Below, piece after piece: positions 34,751 to 41,227 of a stretch of DNA of 64,000 nt. The notes under the pieces were generated by a model. That model had not been told where the DNA came from. It saw nothing but the letters and a program-made list of their open reading frames with translations, and did no database searches. This DNA comes from Pseudanabaena mucicola str. Chao 1806. Lineage in GTDB: Bacteria > Cyanobacteriota > Cyanobacteriia > Pseudanabaenales > Pseudanabaenaceae. Positions within the stretch are counted from its first letter, which is position 1. Every line of letters starts with the position of its first letter. Position numbers and translations under genes: made by a program. The stretch lies in contig NZ_CP097329.1 of NCBI RefSeq assembly GCF_030323025.1, positions 2,962,001-3,026,000 of the forward strand, given 5' to 3'.

Positions 34751-34837
34751 TATTGCGATCGCAAATCTCTCCACAAAAAAGGCGATCGCGTAAAAAATTA
34801 ACTTTCTTCCGCTAAAAAAATATCTGTTTAATGTTTG

Positions 34838-35259: not shown

Positions 35260-35412
35260 GTTTTTGCCTCCTGCTGCGTTGTGGTACTGCTGTTACAAAT
35301 CTAGCAATGTTTTCACCTTTCCGCATAAAGTCCCAAACAATCACAATATTCATGATTTCATGTTTTCGTTGTAAGATCTAGGTTATGAGAGATCTAACAT
35401 TGAGGTAACAAA

Positions 35413-35637
35413 ATGGAAAATCAATTAATTGTAAGAGATCCTGAAATTATCTCTGGAATACCTGTATTTAAGGGGACTAGAGTTCCTGTAAAGAACTTGG
35501 TTGATTATCTTGAAGCAGGAGACTCTCTGGAGGAATTTTTAGATGACTTCCCAACTGTGCAGAAAGAGAAAGTGGTGGAGTTTTTAAATCTATCCATCAA
35601 ATATTATTTGGCACATGATTATGAAAGTGATACTTGA
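35413..35637 (+). CDS. DUF433 antitoxin
   Basis: 74 residues with the DUF433 core: RDPEIISGIPVFKGTRVPVK and LEAGDSLEEFLDDFPTV. DUF433 proteins have a winged HTH-like fold and pair with DUF5615 PIN-like toxins. The toxin start overlaps its 3' end, but that toxin is only a stub here, leaving an orphan antitoxin. Confidence 0.85.
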   Translation: MENQLIVRDPEIISGIPVFKGTRVPVKNLVDYLEAGDSLEEFLDDFPTVQKEKVVEFLNLSIKYYLAHDYESDT

Positions 35638-35674
35638 TGAGTGCTTGCACAAAAAAATTGCCCTAAATCCGTGA
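35621..35674 (+). pseudogene. DUF5615 toxin stub
   Basis: Overlapping the DUF433 gene, the frame reads MKVILDECLHKKIALNP and then stops. MKVILDECL is the exact start of DUF5615 (Mut7-C-like/PIN-like) toxins, with the first acidic pair. After about 10 codons the sequence leaves the family, so the toxin was deleted, apparently at the point where the next module (ending 35663) begins. Confidence 0.7.
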
Positions 35675-36070
35675 ACTTTCTTCATAGACTTGAAAATCCA
35701 CAGGGGAAATAATATCAATGTTTTCAAATCTGGCGATCGCCAATAAATCTTTGTCTCCCGTAAGGATACATTGAGCTTTACCCGCTAAAGCTGTTGCCAA
35801 AATCCAATCATCATCAATATCGCGACATACTTGCTGTTCTAATTGAGAAGGGATAACTATTTCCATCTTTGAACGAAATATTGATAAAGCCTCGTTTATA
35901 TCTTCTGTCTCATACTTGAATTTCTTTTGGAGCTTTTCTGCTAGTTCGTCAAGTATAAATTTGGAAGAAATAATCTCATGAACTTTGAGAGAATGTTCTA
36001 CAAGTGCATAGCATTTGCCTCTAGATATCAGTGATGCTATTAAAACATTGGTATCAAGGACAATTCTCAT
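35663..36070 (-). CDS. PIN-domain RNase toxin
   Basis: 135 residues, full length. Acidic sites are in RIVLDTNVLIASL (Asp5), FILDELAEKL (Glu), DDDWILATALAGKAQ and LTGDKDLL (Asp), as in COG1569-type PIN toxins that cut RNA. Its ATG overlaps the antitoxin stop by 4 bases, the usual antitoxin-toxin coupling. Confidence 0.85.
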   Translation of the reverse strand: MRIVLDTNVLIASLISRGKCYALVEHSLKVHEIISSKFILDELAEKLQKKFKYETEDINEALSIFRSKMEIVIPSQLEQQVCRDIDDDWILATALAGKAQCILTGDKDLLAIARFENIDIISPVDFQVYEESSRI

Positions 36071-36285
36071 GACACCATTTCAAAGATGTCTTCGTCAGTA
36101 AAGCCGCCTTGTAGGTCAGCTTGTTTAAGCATTTTTTCGCGTAATGTTTGCAATCTACGCACTAACAGATATTCACGAACCGCGCGTTCGATGAGTTCGA
36201 GGGGTGAGATTGCTTCAATCTGCGATCGCGCTTCAAGTGAGTCTCTGACATCGGTTGGTAAGTTTAGCGTTATGGCTTCTTGCAT
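36067..36285 (-). CDS. Ribbon-helix-helix antitoxin
   Basis: 72 residues from ATG 36285 (MQEAITLNLPTDVRDSLEAR). The beta strand AITLNLP and two helices fit an RHH DNA-binding domain; the C-terminus QADLQGGFTDEDIFEMV would bind and block the toxin. An earlier ATG at 36300 is possible. It is likely self-regulating with the toxin. Confidence 0.8.
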   Translation of the reverse strand: MQEAITLNLPTDVRDSLEARSQIEAISPLELIERAVREYLLVRRLQTLREKMLKQADLQGGFTDEDIFEMVS

Positions 36286-36387
36286 AGAAAGTAAAAGCAT
36301 TGGTTGTTTTTATTTTAGCAAAAATTAATTTTATTCATAAATGTAGATACAGTTATGCAACACCGTAGTTGGTGTAGGGGAGGATTT

Positions 36388-36636
36388 TTACAGTCGATTA
36401 TTGACATTTAAAATAGTCAGACCAATAATTTCATCATTTTGATAGCGGATCAAAATATCGTCATCTGTGAGTTCACTATCATCGGCAGGAAGTGCGGGTT
36501 GATGAAAATTGATGTACAACACATCAGCTTCGACATCATAAAAAGTCCAAGTATTTTTCTTGGGCAGGTTTTTGATTGCATTAGCTAAGTTGAGATAGCT
36601 AGGAATTTTGAGAGGGTTTAAGGGGATCGTGACCAT
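36388..36636 (-). CDS. DUF2283-like small protein
   Basis: 82 residues. The core TFYDVEADVLYINFHQPALP and ILIRYQNDEIIGLTILNV follows the DUF2283 pattern, a beta-rich fold common next to small toxins. Its start overlaps the 3' end of the next gene upstream by 19 bases, so the two probably act as a pair. Confidence 0.65.
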   Translation of the reverse strand: MVTIPLNPLKIPSYLNLANAIKNLPKKNTWTFYDVEADVLYINFHQPALPADDSELTDDDILIRYQNDEIIGLTILNVNNRL

Positions 36637-36938
36637 ACTTCTTTGCGTTTGTTGAGGGAATTGATACGTTTAGTTAGATAGGCGGTGATGATAAATCCAT
36701 CTTCTTCTTCTTCTTCTTCTTCTTTGTAAATTGTAACCAAATACTTATTATCACCTAGCAGCTTGACTGCTAAAAGTTCACCATTGTTGCCTTCTAGAAT
36801 TTTATCAGGATTTTCTATGGCTTGCAGGGTTTCGGACTGGAGGTTGAGAAGTTCGGGATGTCCTGCGGTTATATGTTGCCATCTTTCCTCGGTTAAGCGA
36901 ATAGTTAGTCCGTTTTTGGCGGATGTAATAAGGGGCAT
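36618..36938 (-). CDS. Small RelE/PBECR-like putative nuclease toxin
   Basis: 106 residues. The pattern LTIRLTEERWQHITAGHPEL..VKLLGDNKYLVTIYKE..GFIITAYLTKRI is common in cyanobacterial toxin-antitoxin loci and resembles RelE-like/PBECR nuclease domains; the exact family is a guess. A run of seven Glu codons (GAA repeats, 36701-36724) sits in the middle of the strand-to-strand turn. Partner: the overlapping DUF2283-like gene. Confidence 0.55.
   Translation of the reverse strand: MPLITSAKNGLTIRLTEERWQHITAGHPELLNLQSETLQAIENPDKILEGNNGELLAVKLLGDNKYLVTIYKEEEEEEEDGFIITAYLTKRINSLNKRKEVWSRSP
36701..36724. repeat. CTT/GAA trinucleotide microsatellite
   Basis: Eight CTT units in the plus strand, coding for the poly-Glu run of the overlapping toxin-like gene. 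Unit gain or loss would keep the frame and change only the length of the acidic loop. Confidence 0.85.
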
Positions 36939-37053
36939 AGTTTTTGTCGATTTAGACAGTTTCCATAGGGTTCTCGCAAAAATCTTAAAAAGAAGTGAAA
37001 GCGGAGAGAGTTAAGTTCTTGCGGAGTAATATTGTGGTGATGAGTTTAGAAAT

Positions 37054-37248
37054 TGTAGCGCAAATGCCCAATCTCTAAAGAAATTGAAAATCTCTATACG
37101 CAAATACTCTACCCTCTTCGCTATTACTGATAAATTATCCCTGCGGTTTGGGGATTGTTTGTTATTTGTAAAGGTTTAGGGCAGAGCATTACCGATTTAA
37201 ATGGATCTTAAAATTTATAAATTGTGGCGGTAATGCTATGCCCCTACA
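37054..37248. repeat. REP-like double-hairpin element, copy A (degenerate left end)
   Basis: Matches copies B and C from CTCTATACGCAAATACTCTA onward, through AAAGGTTTAGGGCAGAGCAT to the right end CCCCTACA. The left terminal arm is damaged (TGTAGCGCAAATGC). It is followed by GAATTTTGTTGTTCTG, a flank shared with copy B, so A and B probably arose as a tandem unit. With copy B it fills the gene-free stretch 36939-37564. Confidence 0.8.
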
Positions 37249-37319
37249 GAATTTTGTTGTTCTGAATCGTGAAATTAATCATCAAATATACATCACAAAA
37301 AAATTTAAATTCATGTGGG

Positions 37320-37524
37320 TGTAGGGGTAGAGCATTTGCGCCAACATTCATCAATTATCACCAAAATCTCTGTATGCAAATGCTCTACCCTCTTGGCTAT
37401 TACCGATAATTTATCCCTGTGGTTTGGGGATTGTTGGTGATTTGCGAAGGTTTAGGGCAGAGCATTACCGATTTAAGGCGATCGCAAAATTTATAGATTG
37501 TGGCGGTAATGCTCTGCCCCTACA
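37320..37524. repeat. REP-like double-hairpin element, copy B
   Basis: 205 bases. Left terminus TGTAGGGGTAGAGCATTTGC, right terminus TAATGCTCTGCCCCTACA, so the ends are inverted repeats starting with GTAG outward. Inside, the left end pairs with GCAAATGCTCTACCC and the right end with AGGGCAGAGCATTACC, giving two stem-loops back to back. Same length as copy C. Confidence 0.85.
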
Positions 37525-37564
37525 AGATTTTGTTGTTTTGGAATTACTAAAAATATATTCTTGA

Positions 37565-37777
37565 TTATCTGGAAATAACTAAATTGGTTTCGCTAGGATT
37601 AAACAGTTGTAGCTTAGAGGCATTTAAAAATTCAATGCTAACGGGTTCTTGGGCTTCGTTGTAGCTGACAATTACGCCGCCTTGCTCGGATATTGCATCG
37701 TATGGCAAATCATCTTGCAAGATGAAAATGAGAATATCTGCTTCTGCATCGTATTTAACTTTCATGGTTATTCTCAT
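37565..37777 (-). CDS. DUF2283 protein (second of pair)
   Basis: 70 residues: MKVKYDAEADILIFILQDDL and GVIVSYNEAQEPVSIEFLNA follow the DUF2283 pattern. It begins 14 bases after the preceding DUF2283 gene and is the last gene of a minus-strand run 39054 to 37565. The start may be at the third codon (MKVKYD). Confidence 0.7.
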   Translation of the reverse strand: MRITMKVKYDAEADILIFILQDDLPYDAISEQGGVIVSYNEAQEPVSIEFLNASKLQLFNPSETNLVISR

Positions 37778-37791
37778 ACCAATGGCTTAGT

Positions 37792-38010
37792 TTAAGCGGG
37801 TTGCAGGGTTTTAAGTTCTAGGTTGGTCAAAATATTAATTGAATTGAGATCTACTTGATTTCGTGCTGACTCAATGGTAATTCCCACTAATTTTTCCTCT
37901 GTGTCAAAGTCTACGGTTACTAATTCGTTAATTTCTTCGGTTCTGGCACTAGGGCGATCACTTAGTTCGATAAAGAGTGTATCTGTGTCTGCAAAGTAAT
38001 GGATTTTCAT
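37792..38010 (-). CDS. DUF2283 protein (first of pair)
   Basis: 72 residues: MKIHYFADTDTLFIELSDRP and LVTVDFDTEEKLVGITIESA are the DUF2283 signature. Start overlaps the end of the upstream gene by 4 bases (ATGA), indicating an operon and probably a partner relationship with 38007-38267. Confidence 0.75.
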   Translation of the reverse strand: MKIHYFADTDTLFIELSDRPSARTEEINELVTVDFDTEEKLVGITIESARNQVDLNSINILTNLELKTLQPA

Positions 38011-38267
38011 ATTTGTCTTCCTTCTCTTTCTAATTGTTTACGAAAATTGCGATCAAAAAATGCGTTATGAATTGTTTCGCCATCATCCAATGTAACAACC
38101 CTTAAAACTCTGTTGTCGGCTTCAGCGATTATACCCCAATGACGAATTCTGCCGTCTGGTTGGGTTTCTACCTTGAGAGGATTTGCAATTACGCGATCGC
38201 ACCAATCTAAGTTAATCTCTAAACGTTTATTGAGGACTATTTTTTCAAAGTATGGAGTTAGCTTCAT
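38007..38267 (-). CDS. Small putative toxin (DUF4258/RelE-like)
   Basis: 86 residues. VLNKRLEINLDWCDRVIANP, DGRIRHWGIIAEADNRVLRV and the closing FFDRNFRK fit a cyanobacterial family usually found beside DUF2283 proteins; I call it toxin-like from that context. It is coupled to the DUF2283 gene and lies 3 bases after the DUF4926-like gene. Confidence 0.6.
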   Translation of the reverse strand: MKLTPYFEKIVLNKRLEINLDWCDRVIANPLKVETQPDGRIRHWGIIAEADNRVLRVVTLDDGETIHNAFFDRNFRKQLEREGRQI

Positions 38268-38270
38268 GTT

Positions 38271-38414
38271 TTAAGCTTTTTCGACTAGGTAGGCTTCACC
38301 ATCTTTAAATATTTCCACGATCGCACCATCAGTTCCTTGTGGGGCAATTCCACCAGAGTGAAGCTGAATATCTTGATTTAAGGTAATGGAATCAAACATT
38401 TGAAGCTTACTCAT
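38271..38414 (-). CDS. DUF4926-like small protein, copy 2 (short)
   Basis: 47 residues, MSKLQMFDSITLNQDIQLHS to GEAYLVEKA. It is a near copy of 35104-35259 but ends sooner, at a stop 3 bases before the next gene. The start overlaps the RHH antitoxin stop (ATGA). The typical C-terminal half of the family is missing, so it is either a minimal form or a truncated duplicate. Confidence 0.6.
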   Translation of the reverse strand: MSKLQMFDSITLNQDIQLHSGGIAPQGTDGAIVEIFKDGEAYLVEKA

Positions 38415-38626
38415 GTTTTTGCATCTAATTTATCCAGTATGCGTAAACCTTCTTGGACATCACCTCTTGCTGCCATTACTTTAAATCTGTTGTAGGTATC
38501 GAATTCAGCTAGAACAATAGTTGATAATTCTTCCATAAGCTTATTGACGCTAATTCCTCGTGACTGAGCTAGTTCCTTTAATCTTGTATGTTTATCATCG
38601 GGAAGTCTAATTGTTAAAGTTGCCAT
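38411..38626 (-). CDS. Ribbon-helix-helix antitoxin
   Basis: 71 residues: MATLTIRLPDDKHTRLKELA then QSRGISVNKLMEEL is a classical RHH domain. It lies just 5 bases after the PIN toxin gene; the toxin-first order is known for some PIN/RHH modules. Confidence 0.82.
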   Translation of the reverse strand: MATLTIRLPDDKHTRLKELAQSRGISVNKLMEELSTIVLAEFDTYNRFKVMAARGDVQEGLRILDKLDAKT

Positions 38627-38631
38627 AAGTG

Positions 38632-39054
38632 TTATCTCCTAACGATTTGTTCTGGCTTGAGAATGGATAAGTTGGGGAAGATGAGATCGCTGTTTGAGAA
38701 GTCTTTGATATTTTTTGTGGCAATAATTTGAGCATTACCTGCGATCGCTAGTTCTATTAAATGGTTATCTGCTTCGTCTCTCAAGTTAGGTCTCCACAAA
38801 TAGTAAATATCAATCCATTGACAGACACTCATGAAAGCATCAATTAAGGTAAAAATCTCCTGTTTTGTCAAAGTACATTGGGTAATGATTTCTTCTCGGA
38901 GAATTACTGACTCATATTCTAAAAATAAGTTGTTTCCCATCAGTGGTTGATATTCTCCTTGAAGGCAGAGCCTAATCAACTCTCGACTTGCTCCAGTGGA
39001 GCCTATTAGAGTGCTGATTAAAACACTAGTATCAATGACAATTCGAGATTTCAT
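38632..39054 (-). CDS. PIN-domain RNase toxin
   Basis: 140 residues. Acidic residues in RIVIDTSVLISTL, LFLEYESVIL, RDEADNHLIELAIAGNAQ and IATKNIKDF match the PIN active site of COG1569-type toxins. Distinct in sequence from the other two PIN genes in the island. Paired with the RHH gene immediately downstream. Confidence 0.83.
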   Translation of the reverse strand: MKSRIVIDTSVLISTLIGSTGASRELIRLCLQGEYQPLMGNNLFLEYESVILREEIITQCTLTKQEIFTLIDAFMSVCQWIDIYYLWRPNLRDEADNHLIELAIAGNAQIIATKNIKDFSNSDLIFPNLSILKPEQIVRR

Positions 39055-39238
39055 GCCAATATGATAGCATATATGATGTCATTCTGTGCGTGATCGCTCT
39101 TTGCAACCAAACTGTAGTTACAAATAATTGGTACTTGTCTAGTCCAGTGATTTCGCCAATAACTAGAAAAAATAGCCTAGTATTCAAAAATTTTTTGTTA
39201 TAGTGAGACAAATCAAGGCTTTAGCTAAACTTAAATAT

Positions 39239-39457
39239 ATGCTTACAACCTTTACCGCAAATTATACAAAGATTGACTCAGGTTATATGGGGCAACTCAT
39301 TGAATGGCAAGAGGTAATAACTGAGGGTGAAACTCTCGAACTTTGTCGTGAATCTTTGCAAGATGCTTTACAGGAAATGATTGCTGCCTATAAGCAACAA
39401 AATAAAGAGATTCCTTCTAGTAAAGCTTTAATTGAGCAGATTCCTGTGGAAGTTTAG
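39239..39457 (+). CDS. hicB: HicB-type antitoxin
   Basis: 72 residues from ATG 39239. The fold resembles a partial RNase H-like HicB domain: ANYTKIDSGYMGQLIEWQEV, then ITEGETLELCRESLQDAL. It lacks an obvious C-terminal DNA-binding domain, as in the short HicB-like antitoxins. hicA starts 2 bases later. Confidence 0.82.
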   Translation: MLTTFTANYTKIDSGYMGQLIEWQEVITEGETLELCRESLQDALQEMIAAYKQQNKEIPSSKALIEQIPVEV

Positions 39458-39459
39458 TT

Positions 39460-39648
39460 ATGTCGGTTAAACGCAGTGATCTGGTGAAATATTTTGAAGA
39501 GAATGGATTTTACCTGCTTAGGGAAGGCGGGAATCATTCCATTTACACCAATAATATCAAAACAATTCCAATTAAGAGACATCGGACAATTGATCGGATT
39601 ACGGCAAATGCGATATGTAAACAAGCAGGGATAACACCGAAGTTTTAG
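39460..39648 (+). CDS. hicA: HicA mRNA interferase toxin
   Basis: 62 residues, double-stranded-RNA-binding-like fold. VKRSDLVKYFEENGFYLLRE then GGNHSIYTN contains the catalytic His (GGNHSIY). The C-terminus ANAICKQAGI fits the family. Intact module with hicB. Confidence 0.87.
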   Translation: MSVKRSDLVKYFEENGFYLLREGGNHSIYTNNIKTIPIKRHRTIDRITANAICKQAGITPKF

Positions 39649-39720
39649 TCTAAACAATTTTCATAGCGATCGCTAATCTCTCTACAAAACAGGCGATCCA
39701 AAAAAAAGGATATCTCTTTT

Positions 39721-40200
39721 TCATTCAGGAATAACTTTCCAGTTTTCAGGATTAGTCAGCATATACTGACGGAGACGATCTAAGTCTTGATCACTTCTGA
39801 CAATTCTTTCATGATAGTTTCGTTGCCAGATAGACACGCCCGAATTATGAGTGATTTTATTGATTTTGCGGGTAGAAATAGATTTGAAGTTTTGAATGAT
39901 CGTAGCTAATGAATACGACTTTTTATCTTGTTCTGAAATAACAATAACTCCATGCAAGTGATCGGGCATGAGGATAAATTGATCAAGTTCCACGTTAGGG
40001 AAATGCTGAGGAATTTTTTGCCAAATCGCAGAGATAATCTGACCTGTGACATTTAGCTGCATTTCCCCATTATTCACTTCTCCAAATAGATGTTGTCTTT
40101 GAAAGGTACAAATAGTTACAAAATAAGCTCCTGATTGAGAATAGTCATACCCCTGTAAACGAATAGAGCGCCGATGATGAATTTCAGGATTGTAAGACAT
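39721..40200 (-). CDS. RAYT-type Y1 (IS200-like) transposase
   Basis: 159 residues from ATG 40200. The HUH motif is in LMPDHLHGVIVI, and a C-terminal IWQRNYHERIVRSDQDLDRL carries a candidate catalytic Tyr. The opening YNPEIHHRRSIRLQGYDYSQ and the single-copy, no-IS-ends layout match REP-associated tyrosine transposases rather than IS200/IS605. It starts 36 bases from a 205-bp double hairpin whose ends begin with GTAG, the tetranucleotide known to flank REPs. In bacteria, RAYTs cut and spread REP hairpins without moving themselves. Confidence 0.85.
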   Translation of the reverse strand: MSYNPEIHHRRSIRLQGYDYSQSGAYFVTICTFQRQHLFGEVNNGEMQLNVTGQIISAIWQKIPQHFPNVELDQFILMPDHLHGVIVISEQDKKSYSLATIIQNFKSISTRKINKITHNSGVSIWQRNYHERIVRSDQDLDRLRQYMLTNPENWKVIPE

Positions 40201-40235
40201 AAAAACATGAAATTTATAAACGTACAAATGGAAAA

Positions 40236-40440
40236 TGTAGGGGTAGAGCATTTGCGCCACAATTTACAAATTATCACCGAAATCTCTATACGCAAATGCT
40301 CTACCCTTTGTGCTGTTACCAATAAATTATCCCTGCGGTTTAGGAATTGTTGGTGATTTGCGAAGGTTTAGGGCAGAGCATTACCGATTTAAATGGATCT
40401 TAAAATTTATATATGGTTGCAGTAATGCTCTGCCCCTACA
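40236..40440. repeat. REP-like double-hairpin element, copy C, beside the RAYT gene
   Basis: 205 bases from TGTAGGGGTAGAGCATTTGC to GCTCTGCCCCTACA. It is very close in sequence to copy B at 37320, including the central CCCTGCGGTTT-type stretch and GGCAGAGCATTACCGATTTA. Two inverted GTAG-hairpin units face each other, as in a BIME. Confidence 0.87.
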
Positions 40441-40510
40441 GCATGATCGTTAATCTCTACATAAAATAGGCGATCGCGCAAATGCCAAAACCTCTTCTCT
40501 GCTTTGAAAA

Positions 40511-41227
40511 TTAAAAATGTTTTTTGATTGATACACGGATATTGAGCCTATCCCATATTTTAATTAAATAGAAACCTAAAACTTTATCGACAGATCTAAT
40601 TTTGGGATCATTATCTCGATAAATTTCTAAGCTTGGTGTAGAAATAAGTCGTTTAAACCTATTTCTCAAGACTAATGCTACCACTTCATATTCAGAAGGA
40701 AAGCTGACTTCAATTTTATAATTATCTTCTATGTATGATTTCTCAAACACATAGGTAACTCCTCGTGCTAATTTATAAGCAAAATCACGCAATTGGTTCT
40801 CATCTATTGGAAGCCAAGGTAGATCGCTACGATAGATATTACTTTTCATACCAAAATTGGGTAGAACTCTTCTGTCAGAGTAAAAATACGGAACTATTTC
40901 TCTTACTAATTCAGATCTTGCCTTTTCTCTAGCAATCTTATCCCTTGAATTTTTCCCATACTTAGGATCGATGGAGCGTATTGCCTTATCAGCAATGTTT
41001 CCATAGTTTTTGTCTTTACTGTCAAAAGTTTCTCCCAACCTGATGAGTAGGTATTTTTCCACCTTACCGTAATGAGCATTGCATTTTGAACAAGCTGGAG
41101 CTTGTGGTTTTGCAAAGTTAGGTGGATTACTCTGTGAATACCATGATTGAGGCAATATATGATCGTCAGTTACGCTCTCAAAGTATTTCAAGCAATGTAT
41201 ACATCGTCGTGTTTTTTCTTTTGTCAT
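40511..41227 (-). CDS. HNH endonuclease-like protein
   Basis: About 238 residues from ATG 41227. The N-terminus holds a zinc-binding HNH-type core: RCIHCLKYFESVTDDHILPQ, then CSKCNAHYGKVE, with two Cys pairs and the DH of the nuclease. The C-terminal part has no domain I recognise. Its AT-content and lack of partner suggest a horizontally acquired or solitary restriction-type nuclease. Confidence 0.7.
   Translation of the reverse strand: MTKEKTRRCIHCLKYFESVTDDHILPQSWYSQSNPPNFAKPQAPACSKCNAHYGKVEKYLLIRLGETFDSKDKNYGNIADKAIRSIDPKYGKNSRDKIAREKARSELVREIVPYFYSDRRVLPNFGMKSNIYRSDLPWLPIDENQLRDFAYKLARGVTYVFEKSYIEDNYKIEVSFPSEYEVVALVLRNRFKRLISTPSLEIYRDNDPKIRSVDKVLGFYLIKIWDRLNIRVSIKKHF

What the first reader, a model, noticed from the sequence alone, without database searches (positions are those of the whole stretch)
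39721..40440. RAYT transposase beside a 205-bp GTAG-ended double-hairpin repeat: a cyanobacterial REP system
Seen: a Y1/HUH transposase (HLH in LMPDHLHG, 159 aa) lies 36 bases from a 205-bp element whose termini are TGTAGGGG and its complement CCCCTACA, each followed by a long inverted arm. Two more copies lie 3 kb away at 37054-37248 and 37320-37524, not next to any transposase. Known: RAYTs act on REP hairpins that carry a GTAG tetranucleotide at the foot. Inference: the gene and the dispersed repeats are a REPtron-like pair in which two inverted REPs form the element (BIME-like). The two intact copies have exactly the same length, which suggests recent spread as a unit.
Basis: partly seen in the sequence, partly recalled or inferred. 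Interest (0 to 1): 0.72.

Follow-up and report, generated by a model that had tools for sequence, protein, structure and literature searches.

The report
Cyanobacterial RAYT gene with its REP repeats
A Pseudanabaena-like cyanobacterium carries one small DNA-cutting enzyme gene next to a scattered family of paired hairpin repeats that it probably moves around the genome, a cyanobacterial example of a known kind of domesticated mobile-DNA system.

Summary
The gene at 39724-40200(-) has no second copy at E<=1e-3 in a 4.53-Mb one-contig genome and scores as a REP-associated tyrosine transposase (RAYT) rather than IS200. The 205-bp element is a head-head pair of two different hairpins (16-bp stem, 33-34-nt loop, GTAG foot outward). 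The genome holds at least 26 such hairpins, 22 with an intact GTAG foot, including 11 head-head pairs, each joining one 'T' and one 'C' type. Stems covary. The same hairpins flank 11 of 12 core-clade RAYTs (72-100% identity) and 0 of 5 of a separate Pseudanabaena clade (~50%). The gene is under purifying selection.

Cyanobacterial RAYT/REP pairs are already published (PMC6006769, PMC3733652, PMC3116915). Long loops and near-strict T+C pairing lie outside the descriptors I read: a new member with a mildly unusual repeat. Cleavage and transposition are untested.

The parts
39724..40200 (-). RAYT/TnpAREP-like HUH-Y1 protein, 159 aa; HUH at DHLH, WQ, catalytic Tyr (by alignment) in YMLTNP
   Evidence: dN/dS 0.09-0.17 against six relatives
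40236..40440 (.). 205-bp head-head REP pair upstream of the RAYT gene
40236..40306 (+). T-type REP hairpin (GTAGGGGTAGAGCATTTGCG, 34-nt loop), foot facing the RAYT start
   Evidence: 84 bits with model R1
40371..40440 (-). C-type REP hairpin (GTAGGGGCAGAGCATTACTG, 33-nt loop)
   Evidence: 77.6 bits
37320..37524 (.). second 205-bp head-head pair (T 37320-37390 +, C 37455-37524 -)
37044..37248 (.). third copy, left hairpin degraded, right C-type hairpin 37179-37248 (-) present with one mismatch
39668..39698 (-). 31-nt HIP1-containing direct repeat on the downstream side of RAYT (role unknown, listed as a lead)
40445..40475 (-). second copy of the 31-nt direct repeat, just beyond the REP pair; the gapped pattern occurs only these two times in the genome

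Best explanation
A REPtron: a RAYT (TnpAREP) gene with its cognate REP family. The REPs are hairpins of about 70 nt with a GTAG foot, arranged head to head as heterodimers (one T-type, one C-type) of about 205 bp, i.e. REPIN/BIME-like non-autonomous elements. Shown: anatomy, covariation, lineage-specific partnership, between-species presence/absence, purifying selection on the gene. Inferred from studied RAYTs: the protein binds the folded single-stranded hairpin, nicks near the GTAG foot through its tyrosine, and so occasionally excises and re-inserts the pair. Also inferred: copies decay in place and multiply locally by tandem duplication.
For: Protein family and fold. Residues named in Quentin 2018 as contacting GTAG or conserved beside it in E. 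coli TnpAREP (W94, Q95, E100, R104) line up with W, Q, E, R of this protein in the alignment; H101 is R here. No second copy at E<=1e-3. Hairpin family in its own genome. Covariation: 98.4% of cells paired, 39 cells changed on both sides and a covariation score of 0.373, each reached by 0 of 500 shuffles and near zero in slid controls for the last two. Partnership: 11 of 12 distinct core-clade RAYTs flanked by R1 hairpins, 0 of 5 of the separate Pseudanabaena clade, although three hosts of that clade without a core-clade or L025-type gene (G005, G014, G020) carry the repeats elsewhere (Fisher p 0.001, not corrected for shared descent). Outside the genus, 5 of 9 genomes with a RAYT match below 1e-20 carry R1 hairpins against 1 of 24 others (p 0.003, threshold chosen afterwards, not corrected for descent). 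Presence/absence at orthologous sites. dN/dS 0.09-0.17.
Against: No cleavage, binding or movement was observed. No clean empty site: at the three loci examined the genome without the element holds other sequence. Repeats persist in genus genomes without a RAYT match (G006, G007, G016, G019). One core-clade RAYT (G023) has no REP beside it (an IS110-like ORF abuts the GTAG remnant). Two weaker covariation measures are less striking: pairs with a double change 7 against 5.2 expected (16 of 500 shuffles reach it) and further pair types 14 against 12.2 (86 of 500). The NCBIfam score is just below its cutoff. The own genome was searched for relatives of this protein, not with a Y1 family model, so a distant second Y1 gene is not excluded.
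Confidence: 0.86

Rival explanations
1. The 205-bp elements are MITEs of a classical (DDE) transposase, using the ~37-bp imperfect terminal inverted repeats, and the RAYT neighbour is a coincidence.
For: The element ends are inverted repeats of about 37 nt, 86% complementary between copies (I1-I2). Other, different repeats occupy the same intergenic sites in relatives.
Against: The flanks printed show no obvious target-site duplication (by eye, not scored); each end is a complete hairpin with its own covarying stem; the same hairpins flank 11 of 12 core-clade RAYTs.
Confidence: 0.05
2. An IS200/IS605 insertion sequence whose left and right ends are the hairpins.
For: Y1_Tnp Pfam domain; IS608 and ISDra2 folds score almost as well as 4er8.
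Against: No second copy at E<=1e-3; locus shared with G010 over about 2.2 kb at 92%; REP family model far better than IS200; in relatives hairpins lie inverted on both sides, feet towards the gene; in the window the R1 scan finds no hairpin between the gene's end and 37524.
Confidence: 0.04
3. The repeats are now maintained mainly as transcript-level elements (terminators or mRNA-stabilising hairpins) and the RAYT no longer moves them.
For: Diverged copies; orthologous element kept in five species at one locus; repeats retained without RAYT.
Confidence: 0.2

Closest known systems
TnpA_Y1 subclass 2.4 (= Bertels RAYT group 4) with cyanobacterial long/double-foot REPs, Quentin et al. 2018 (PMC6006769)
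   Same: Abundant in cyanobacteria; GTAG-footed long REPs flank the gene; WQ and YIxxNP motifs; several relatives found here have variable inserts between HUH and Y (L048, L052, L053), as the paper describes for this subclass.
   Different: This protein has no insert and reads DHLH/YMLTNP; its REP loops are about 33-35 nt, whereas the paper's search descriptor allowed a loop of 2-5 nt or an extra paired stem behind a 1-3 nt bulge (its basal stem of 7-20 nt does cover the 16 bp here). Subclass assignment was not tested with the authors' models.
GTAG REP superfamily and REPtrons, Di Nocera et al. 2013 (PMC3733652); GTAG-12, -15, -16 in cyanobacteria
   Same: GTAG foot, head-head dimers with conserved spacers, heterodimers, RAYT neighbour.
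   Different: Their Table 1 gives stems of 5-13 bp and loops of 2-20 bp; here 16 bp and about 33-35 nt. Figure 1 consensus sequences are not held, so sequence relation is untested.
REPINs, Bertels & Rainey 2011 (PMC3116915)
   Same: Inverted REP doublet as the unit, beside the RAYT, tandem clusters with flanking DNA; N. punctiforme is named among their examples (passage).
   Different: From recall, shorter hairpins and higher copy number in their main model genome.
E. coli TnpAREP (4er8) with its Y/Z REP BIMEs
   Same: Fold, HUH-Tyr, residues that contact GTAG, two REP subtypes served by one gene.
   Different: 19% identity in the structural alignment; E. coli REP stems carry a bulge (abstract of PMC8266576), most stems here are perfect.

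Membership tests
RAYT / TnpAREP | HUH plus single catalytic Tyr (Y1) fold | tested here: met
RAYT / TnpAREP | Closer to REP transposases than to IS200 transposases | tested here: met
   NF047646 75.5 bits vs NF033573 24.8 bits, both below their curated cutoffs (80 and 55). Foldseek ranks 4er8 first but IS608/ISDra2 close behind, so the fold alone does not decide
RAYT / TnpAREP | Single copy, not dispersed as an IS | tested here: met
   1 match to this protein at E<=1e-3 in the one-contig genome; no Y1 family-model search was run
RAYT / TnpAREP | Gene flanked by GTAG/GTGG-footed REP hairpins | tested here: met
   in the window close by on the 5' side only, in several relatives on both sides
[quoted passage not shown]
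   needs protein
TnpA_Y1 subclass 2.4 | Subclass motifs NH[IFV]H, WQ, YIxNNP and variable insert between HUH and Y | tested here: inconclusive
   WQ met; DHLH and YMLTNP deviate; no insert in this protein; more distant relatives have NH[ILV]H and YIxxNP and some have inserts
REP / REPIN / BIME | GTAG at the foot of a palindrome | tested here: met
   22 of 26 own-genome hairpins
REP / REPIN / BIME | Many dispersed, mostly extragenic copies | tested here: inconclusive
   at least 26 full-length hairpins at 15 places: dispersed but few; extragenic position not scored
REP / REPIN / BIME | Inverted doublets | tested here: met
   11 head-head pairs in own genome, read from the list; 18 in ten relatives' RAYT loci by script
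REP / REPIN / BIME | Stem and loop within published ranges | tested here: not met
   stem 16 bp, loop 32-35 nt against stem 5-13 and loop 2-20 in PMC3733652 Table 1; I treat these as descriptive ranges, not as defining
IS200/IS605 insertion sequence | Mobile unit of gene with its own subterminal hairpin ends, multicopy | tested here: not met
   no second copy; shared locus in G010; no hairpin close downstream in the window

The most novel reading that the evidence does not exclude
The T and C hairpins are two functionally distinct ends, comparable to the left and right ends of IS200/IS605, so that a RAYT acts on an obligate heterodimer. Support: 11 of 11 own pairs (one typed by its stem arm) and 17 of 18 pairs in relatives are T+C; the hairpin next to the RAYT start is T-type in 11 of 11 distinct core-clade loci that hold upstream hairpins, and the one next to its stop is C-type in 8 of 8 loci that have one. 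With mostly perfect 16-bp stems and loops of nearly fixed length (33-35 nt), this would be a recognition mode different from the bulged and short-loop REPs studied so far.
Probability: 0.3. Interest if true: 0.55.

Novelty: new member of a known kind. Interest (0 to 1): 0.32.

Why it matters
How RAYTs recognise and spread REPs, and why hosts keep them, is still open. This pair is compact (one gene, some 26 hairpins, one-contig genome), has a comparison clade of RAYTs in the same genus that lacks the hairpins, and has two hairpin types in a fixed arrangement. It would let one test whether the two hairpins act as distinct ends, and how loops of 33-35 nt are read.

Tried and rejected
Rfam scan of 36900-40600 gave three sub-threshold miRNA matches only, taken as chance hits to hairpins. 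Element loci compared with relatives: L004 was uninformative because its two flanks lie apart in relatives; three others gave presence/absence but with unrelated sequence in place of the element. I considered the 31-nt direct repeats bounding RAYT plus REP as a target duplication; the downstream copy is kept in G004 and in diverged form in G010, and a third, related copy lies at window 34755-34776, so I left it as a lead. The first pattern for it was written in the wrong orientation and found nothing, and a later window pattern also found nothing.

Limits of the counts. R1 in the own genome scored 150 of 3404 first-look candidates and in relatives 87 per genome with stricter filters, and palindromes match on both strands, so genome counts are rough lower bounds. 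In the with/without comparison I dropped G001, G012, G013 (partial, insert-bearing or fragmentary genes) and G006, G016 (under 90% complete): p 0.005. G012 turned out to hold the L025-type gene; counting it as 'with' gives 0.003, as 'without' 0.009, and G001, G012, G013 all as 'without' 0.02. The hairpin set for A1 was picked by a script that demanded a GTAGGG start and a pairing stem, so percent-paired is biased upwards; the contrast with slid controls is less affected.

A grouping that I changed on checking. I first grouped RAYTs by identity alone into A (13, with L025) and B (6, with L026), giving 12 of 13 against 0 of 6 flanked (Fisher p 2.6e-4). The tree puts L025 and L026 in an unresolved part outside both groups, so the main count is now 11 of 12 against 0 of 5 (p 0.001). 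The tree supports the five-member clade (99/98) but most deep forks are open.

Literature: searches. I read named sections or passages of PMC6006769, PMC3733652 and PMC8266576 (its outline, abstract and first part of the discussion), and passages of PMC2817692 and PMC3116915; none in full. The search for Pseudanabaena with MITE, repeats and transposase found 0 papers. I did not search for a published description of this very repeat by sequence.

Full report
Setting. The window lies in a 4.53-Mb genome held as one contig. Its name is not given; a genome-collection record with a 100% identical protein is titled Pseudanabaena sp. (L020), so I call it Pseudanabaena-like.

The gene. ORF 39724-40200 on the minus strand codes for 159 aa. 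Pfam: Y1_Tnp. NCBIfam: REP-associated tyrosine transposase 75.5 bits (cutoff 80), IS200 24.8 bits (cutoff 55). The only sequence match among solved structures at E<=1 is 4er8, E. coli TnpAREP, at a weak E of 0.037. An AlphaFold2 model from 18 aligned proteins (mean pLDDT 80) finds 4er8 first (E 2.1e-7, TM by query 0.63), with IS608 and ISDra2 transposases close behind, so fold alone does not separate RAYT from IS200. The two H of HUH, WQ and the tyrosine are invariant in the 18-row alignment. The protein has one match at E<=1e-3 in its genome, itself. It evolves under purifying selection, dN/dS 0.09-0.17 against six relatives; for three of them dS is above 1.5, so those ratios are rough. G010 shares the region 38279-40441, gene and element included, at 92%.

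The repeat. Each 205-bp element is two hairpins, feet outward. Model R1, built from 19 own-genome hairpins with the 16-pair stem, finds 53 matches at E<=0.01 in the genome (150 of 3404 candidates scored). Of these, 27 reach 50 bits; one of the 27 is the opposite strand of another, leaving 26 hairpins, 22 with GTAG at the foot and four with degenerate feet. Of the other 26 matches, 21 are opposite strands of these hairpins and five (28-41 bits) are fragments or decayed copies. Read from the list, the hairpins form 11 head-head pairs; two of the 11 have extra units between the partners. By tip sequence ATTTGC versus others, 10 of the 11 pairs are T+C; the 11th (4295182) counts as T by its TTTAGC arm. 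A stricter script, which needs intact feet and a gap of at most 110 nt, finds 5 head-head pairs and one tail-tail pair in the own genome, all T+C, and in ten relatives' RAYT loci 18 head-head pairs (17 T+C, one C+C with mixed arms), 7 tail-tail and 2 head-tail. Stem covariation: 98.4% of cells paired, 39 cells changed on both sides against a shuffled mean of 12.2, no shuffle of 500 as high, near zero when slid; pairs with a double change (7 against 5.2, 16 of 500) and further pair types (14 against 12.2, 86 of 500) are less striking.

Partnership. A maximum-likelihood tree of 26 proteins (most deep forks open) separates a core group with the window gene, made of two subgroups (91/78 and 89/76), from a well-supported clade of five Pseudanabaena RAYTs (99/98). 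After merging records with identical genes, 11 of 12 core genes have R1 hairpins close by: own (with L020), L021/L034, L022/L038, L023, L024/L039, L028/L044 (truncated gene), L032, L033, L035, L036, L037. A further core-type gene without a locus, G010:C40, also lies among R1 matches. The exception, L031 of G023, has an IS110-like transposase ORF abutting the GTAG remnant and no REP beyond it in the 6-kb stretch read. Of the five (L027/L043, L040, L041, L042, L045) none has an R1 match in its locus; an inverted-repeat scan of 600 nt on each side of four of them (L041 not included) found no GTAG-footed hairpin. Two genes lie outside both groups: L025 (61% identity, Phormidium tenue) has an R1 hairpin just downstream, with foot ATAG; L026 (48%, Snowella) has no R1 match but a 10-pair hairpin reading GTAGGGACATAA 363 nt upstream. 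Three more distant RAYTs (L047, L052, L053) carry related hairpins of other sequence, such as GTAGGGGCGAAGCATT and GTAGGGGCGAGGCATT, and L048 carries GTAGGGGCGGGTTT hairpins below the R1 threshold. The remaining distant loci scanned (L029, L030, L046, L049-L051, L054-L057, L059) gave no R1 match at E<=0.001. A RAYT remnant in G024 (L058) still has hairpins.

Arrangement. The hairpin next to the RAYT start is T-type with its foot towards the gene in 11 of 11 distinct core loci that hold upstream hairpins (own, L021, L022, L023, L024, L028, L032, L033, L035, L036, L037; the last reads ATTTGTG and the script typed it C; the foot of L028 is degenerate). The hairpin next to the stop is C-type in 8 of 8 loci that have one (L021, L022, L023, L024, L025, L035, L036, L037; feet of L024 and L025 degenerate). 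So the gene sits in the position of the spacer between two consecutive head-head pairs.

Distribution. R1 matches occur in 31 of 58 genomes: 25 of 25 of the genus and 6 of 33 outside. RAYT matches at E<=1e-3 occur in 33 of 58. In the genus four genomes have repeats but no RAYT match (G006, G007, G016, G019; G006 and G016 are incomplete). Outside the genus 5 of 9 genomes with a RAYT match below 1e-20 have repeats, against 1 of 24 others (p 0.003, uncorrected for descent, threshold set afterwards).

History. The two intact 205-bp copies are 87% identical; the closest pair in the genome is 94% (4450805 and 4451643, which are neighbours). The copies at 37044-37248 and 37320-37524 share a 15-nt flank at 87% (D4), as expected of tandem duplication. 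At the 4295182 locus own, G021 and G009 carry the element while G005, G014, G022, G008, G017 and G019 carry other, C-rich sequence that looks palindromic by eye. At the 4496657 locus own, G021, G022, G015 and G009 carry it and G014 does not. At 978977, G014 lacks both the element and a neighbouring MITE-like repeat. These show turnover between species, not a clean excision.

Reading. This is a REPtron of the kind described for cyanobacteria in PMC6006769 (sections 12, 13, 38 and passages read), PMC3733652 (passages and section 16) and PMC3116915 (passages). RAYTs are known to process folded single-stranded REPs, with GTAG involved in binding or cleavage-site choice (PMC8266576, abstract and first part of the discussion); that step is inferred here. 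What departs from those descriptions is the loop of about 33-35 nt and the near-strict T+C pairing. Confidence in the best explanation was lowered by 0.01 on checking, because the grouping of RAYTs became smaller.

Noticed in passing
window 39668-39698, 40445-40475, 34755-34776: A HIP1-containing repeat of about 31 nt bounds the RAYT plus REP unit as direct repeats (gapped pattern only these two in the genome); a second pattern with 3 mismatches adds one more copy 5 kb away.
   Followed up: partly
window 35400-39650: Cluster of toxin-antitoxin-like genes: two PIN-domain proteins, a ribbon-helix-helix protein, a HicA toxin and a DUF433 protein. The order of this region differs in G010.
   Followed up: partly
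L060 1325-2374 (G023): A 328-aa ORF that looks like an IS110-family transposase (named from recall of its sequence, no family scan run) lies directly at the GTAG remnant upstream of the RAYT, where the REP pair is missing; a paper on REPs as insertion targets of ISs appears in the search listing (listing only).
   Followed up: partly
L062 315-475: A separate MITE-like repeat of about 155 bp with inverted ends sits beside a REP pair; many of G023's 37 matches are to it.
   Followed up: no
L052, L053, L048: RAYT relatives with long in-frame inserts between HUH and Tyr, repetitive in L048 and L052, as reported for REP insertions inside subclass 2.4 genes.
   Followed up: no
window 40511-41203: ORF with a sub-threshold HNH endonuclease match right beyond the REP pair; the stretch has no BLAST match in the G010 region compared.
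   Followed up: no
L070 500-730 and the matching stretch in G005, G014, G022: Different C-rich, palindromic-looking sequence fills the same intergenic site where own, G021 and G009 hold a REP pair.
   Followed up: no
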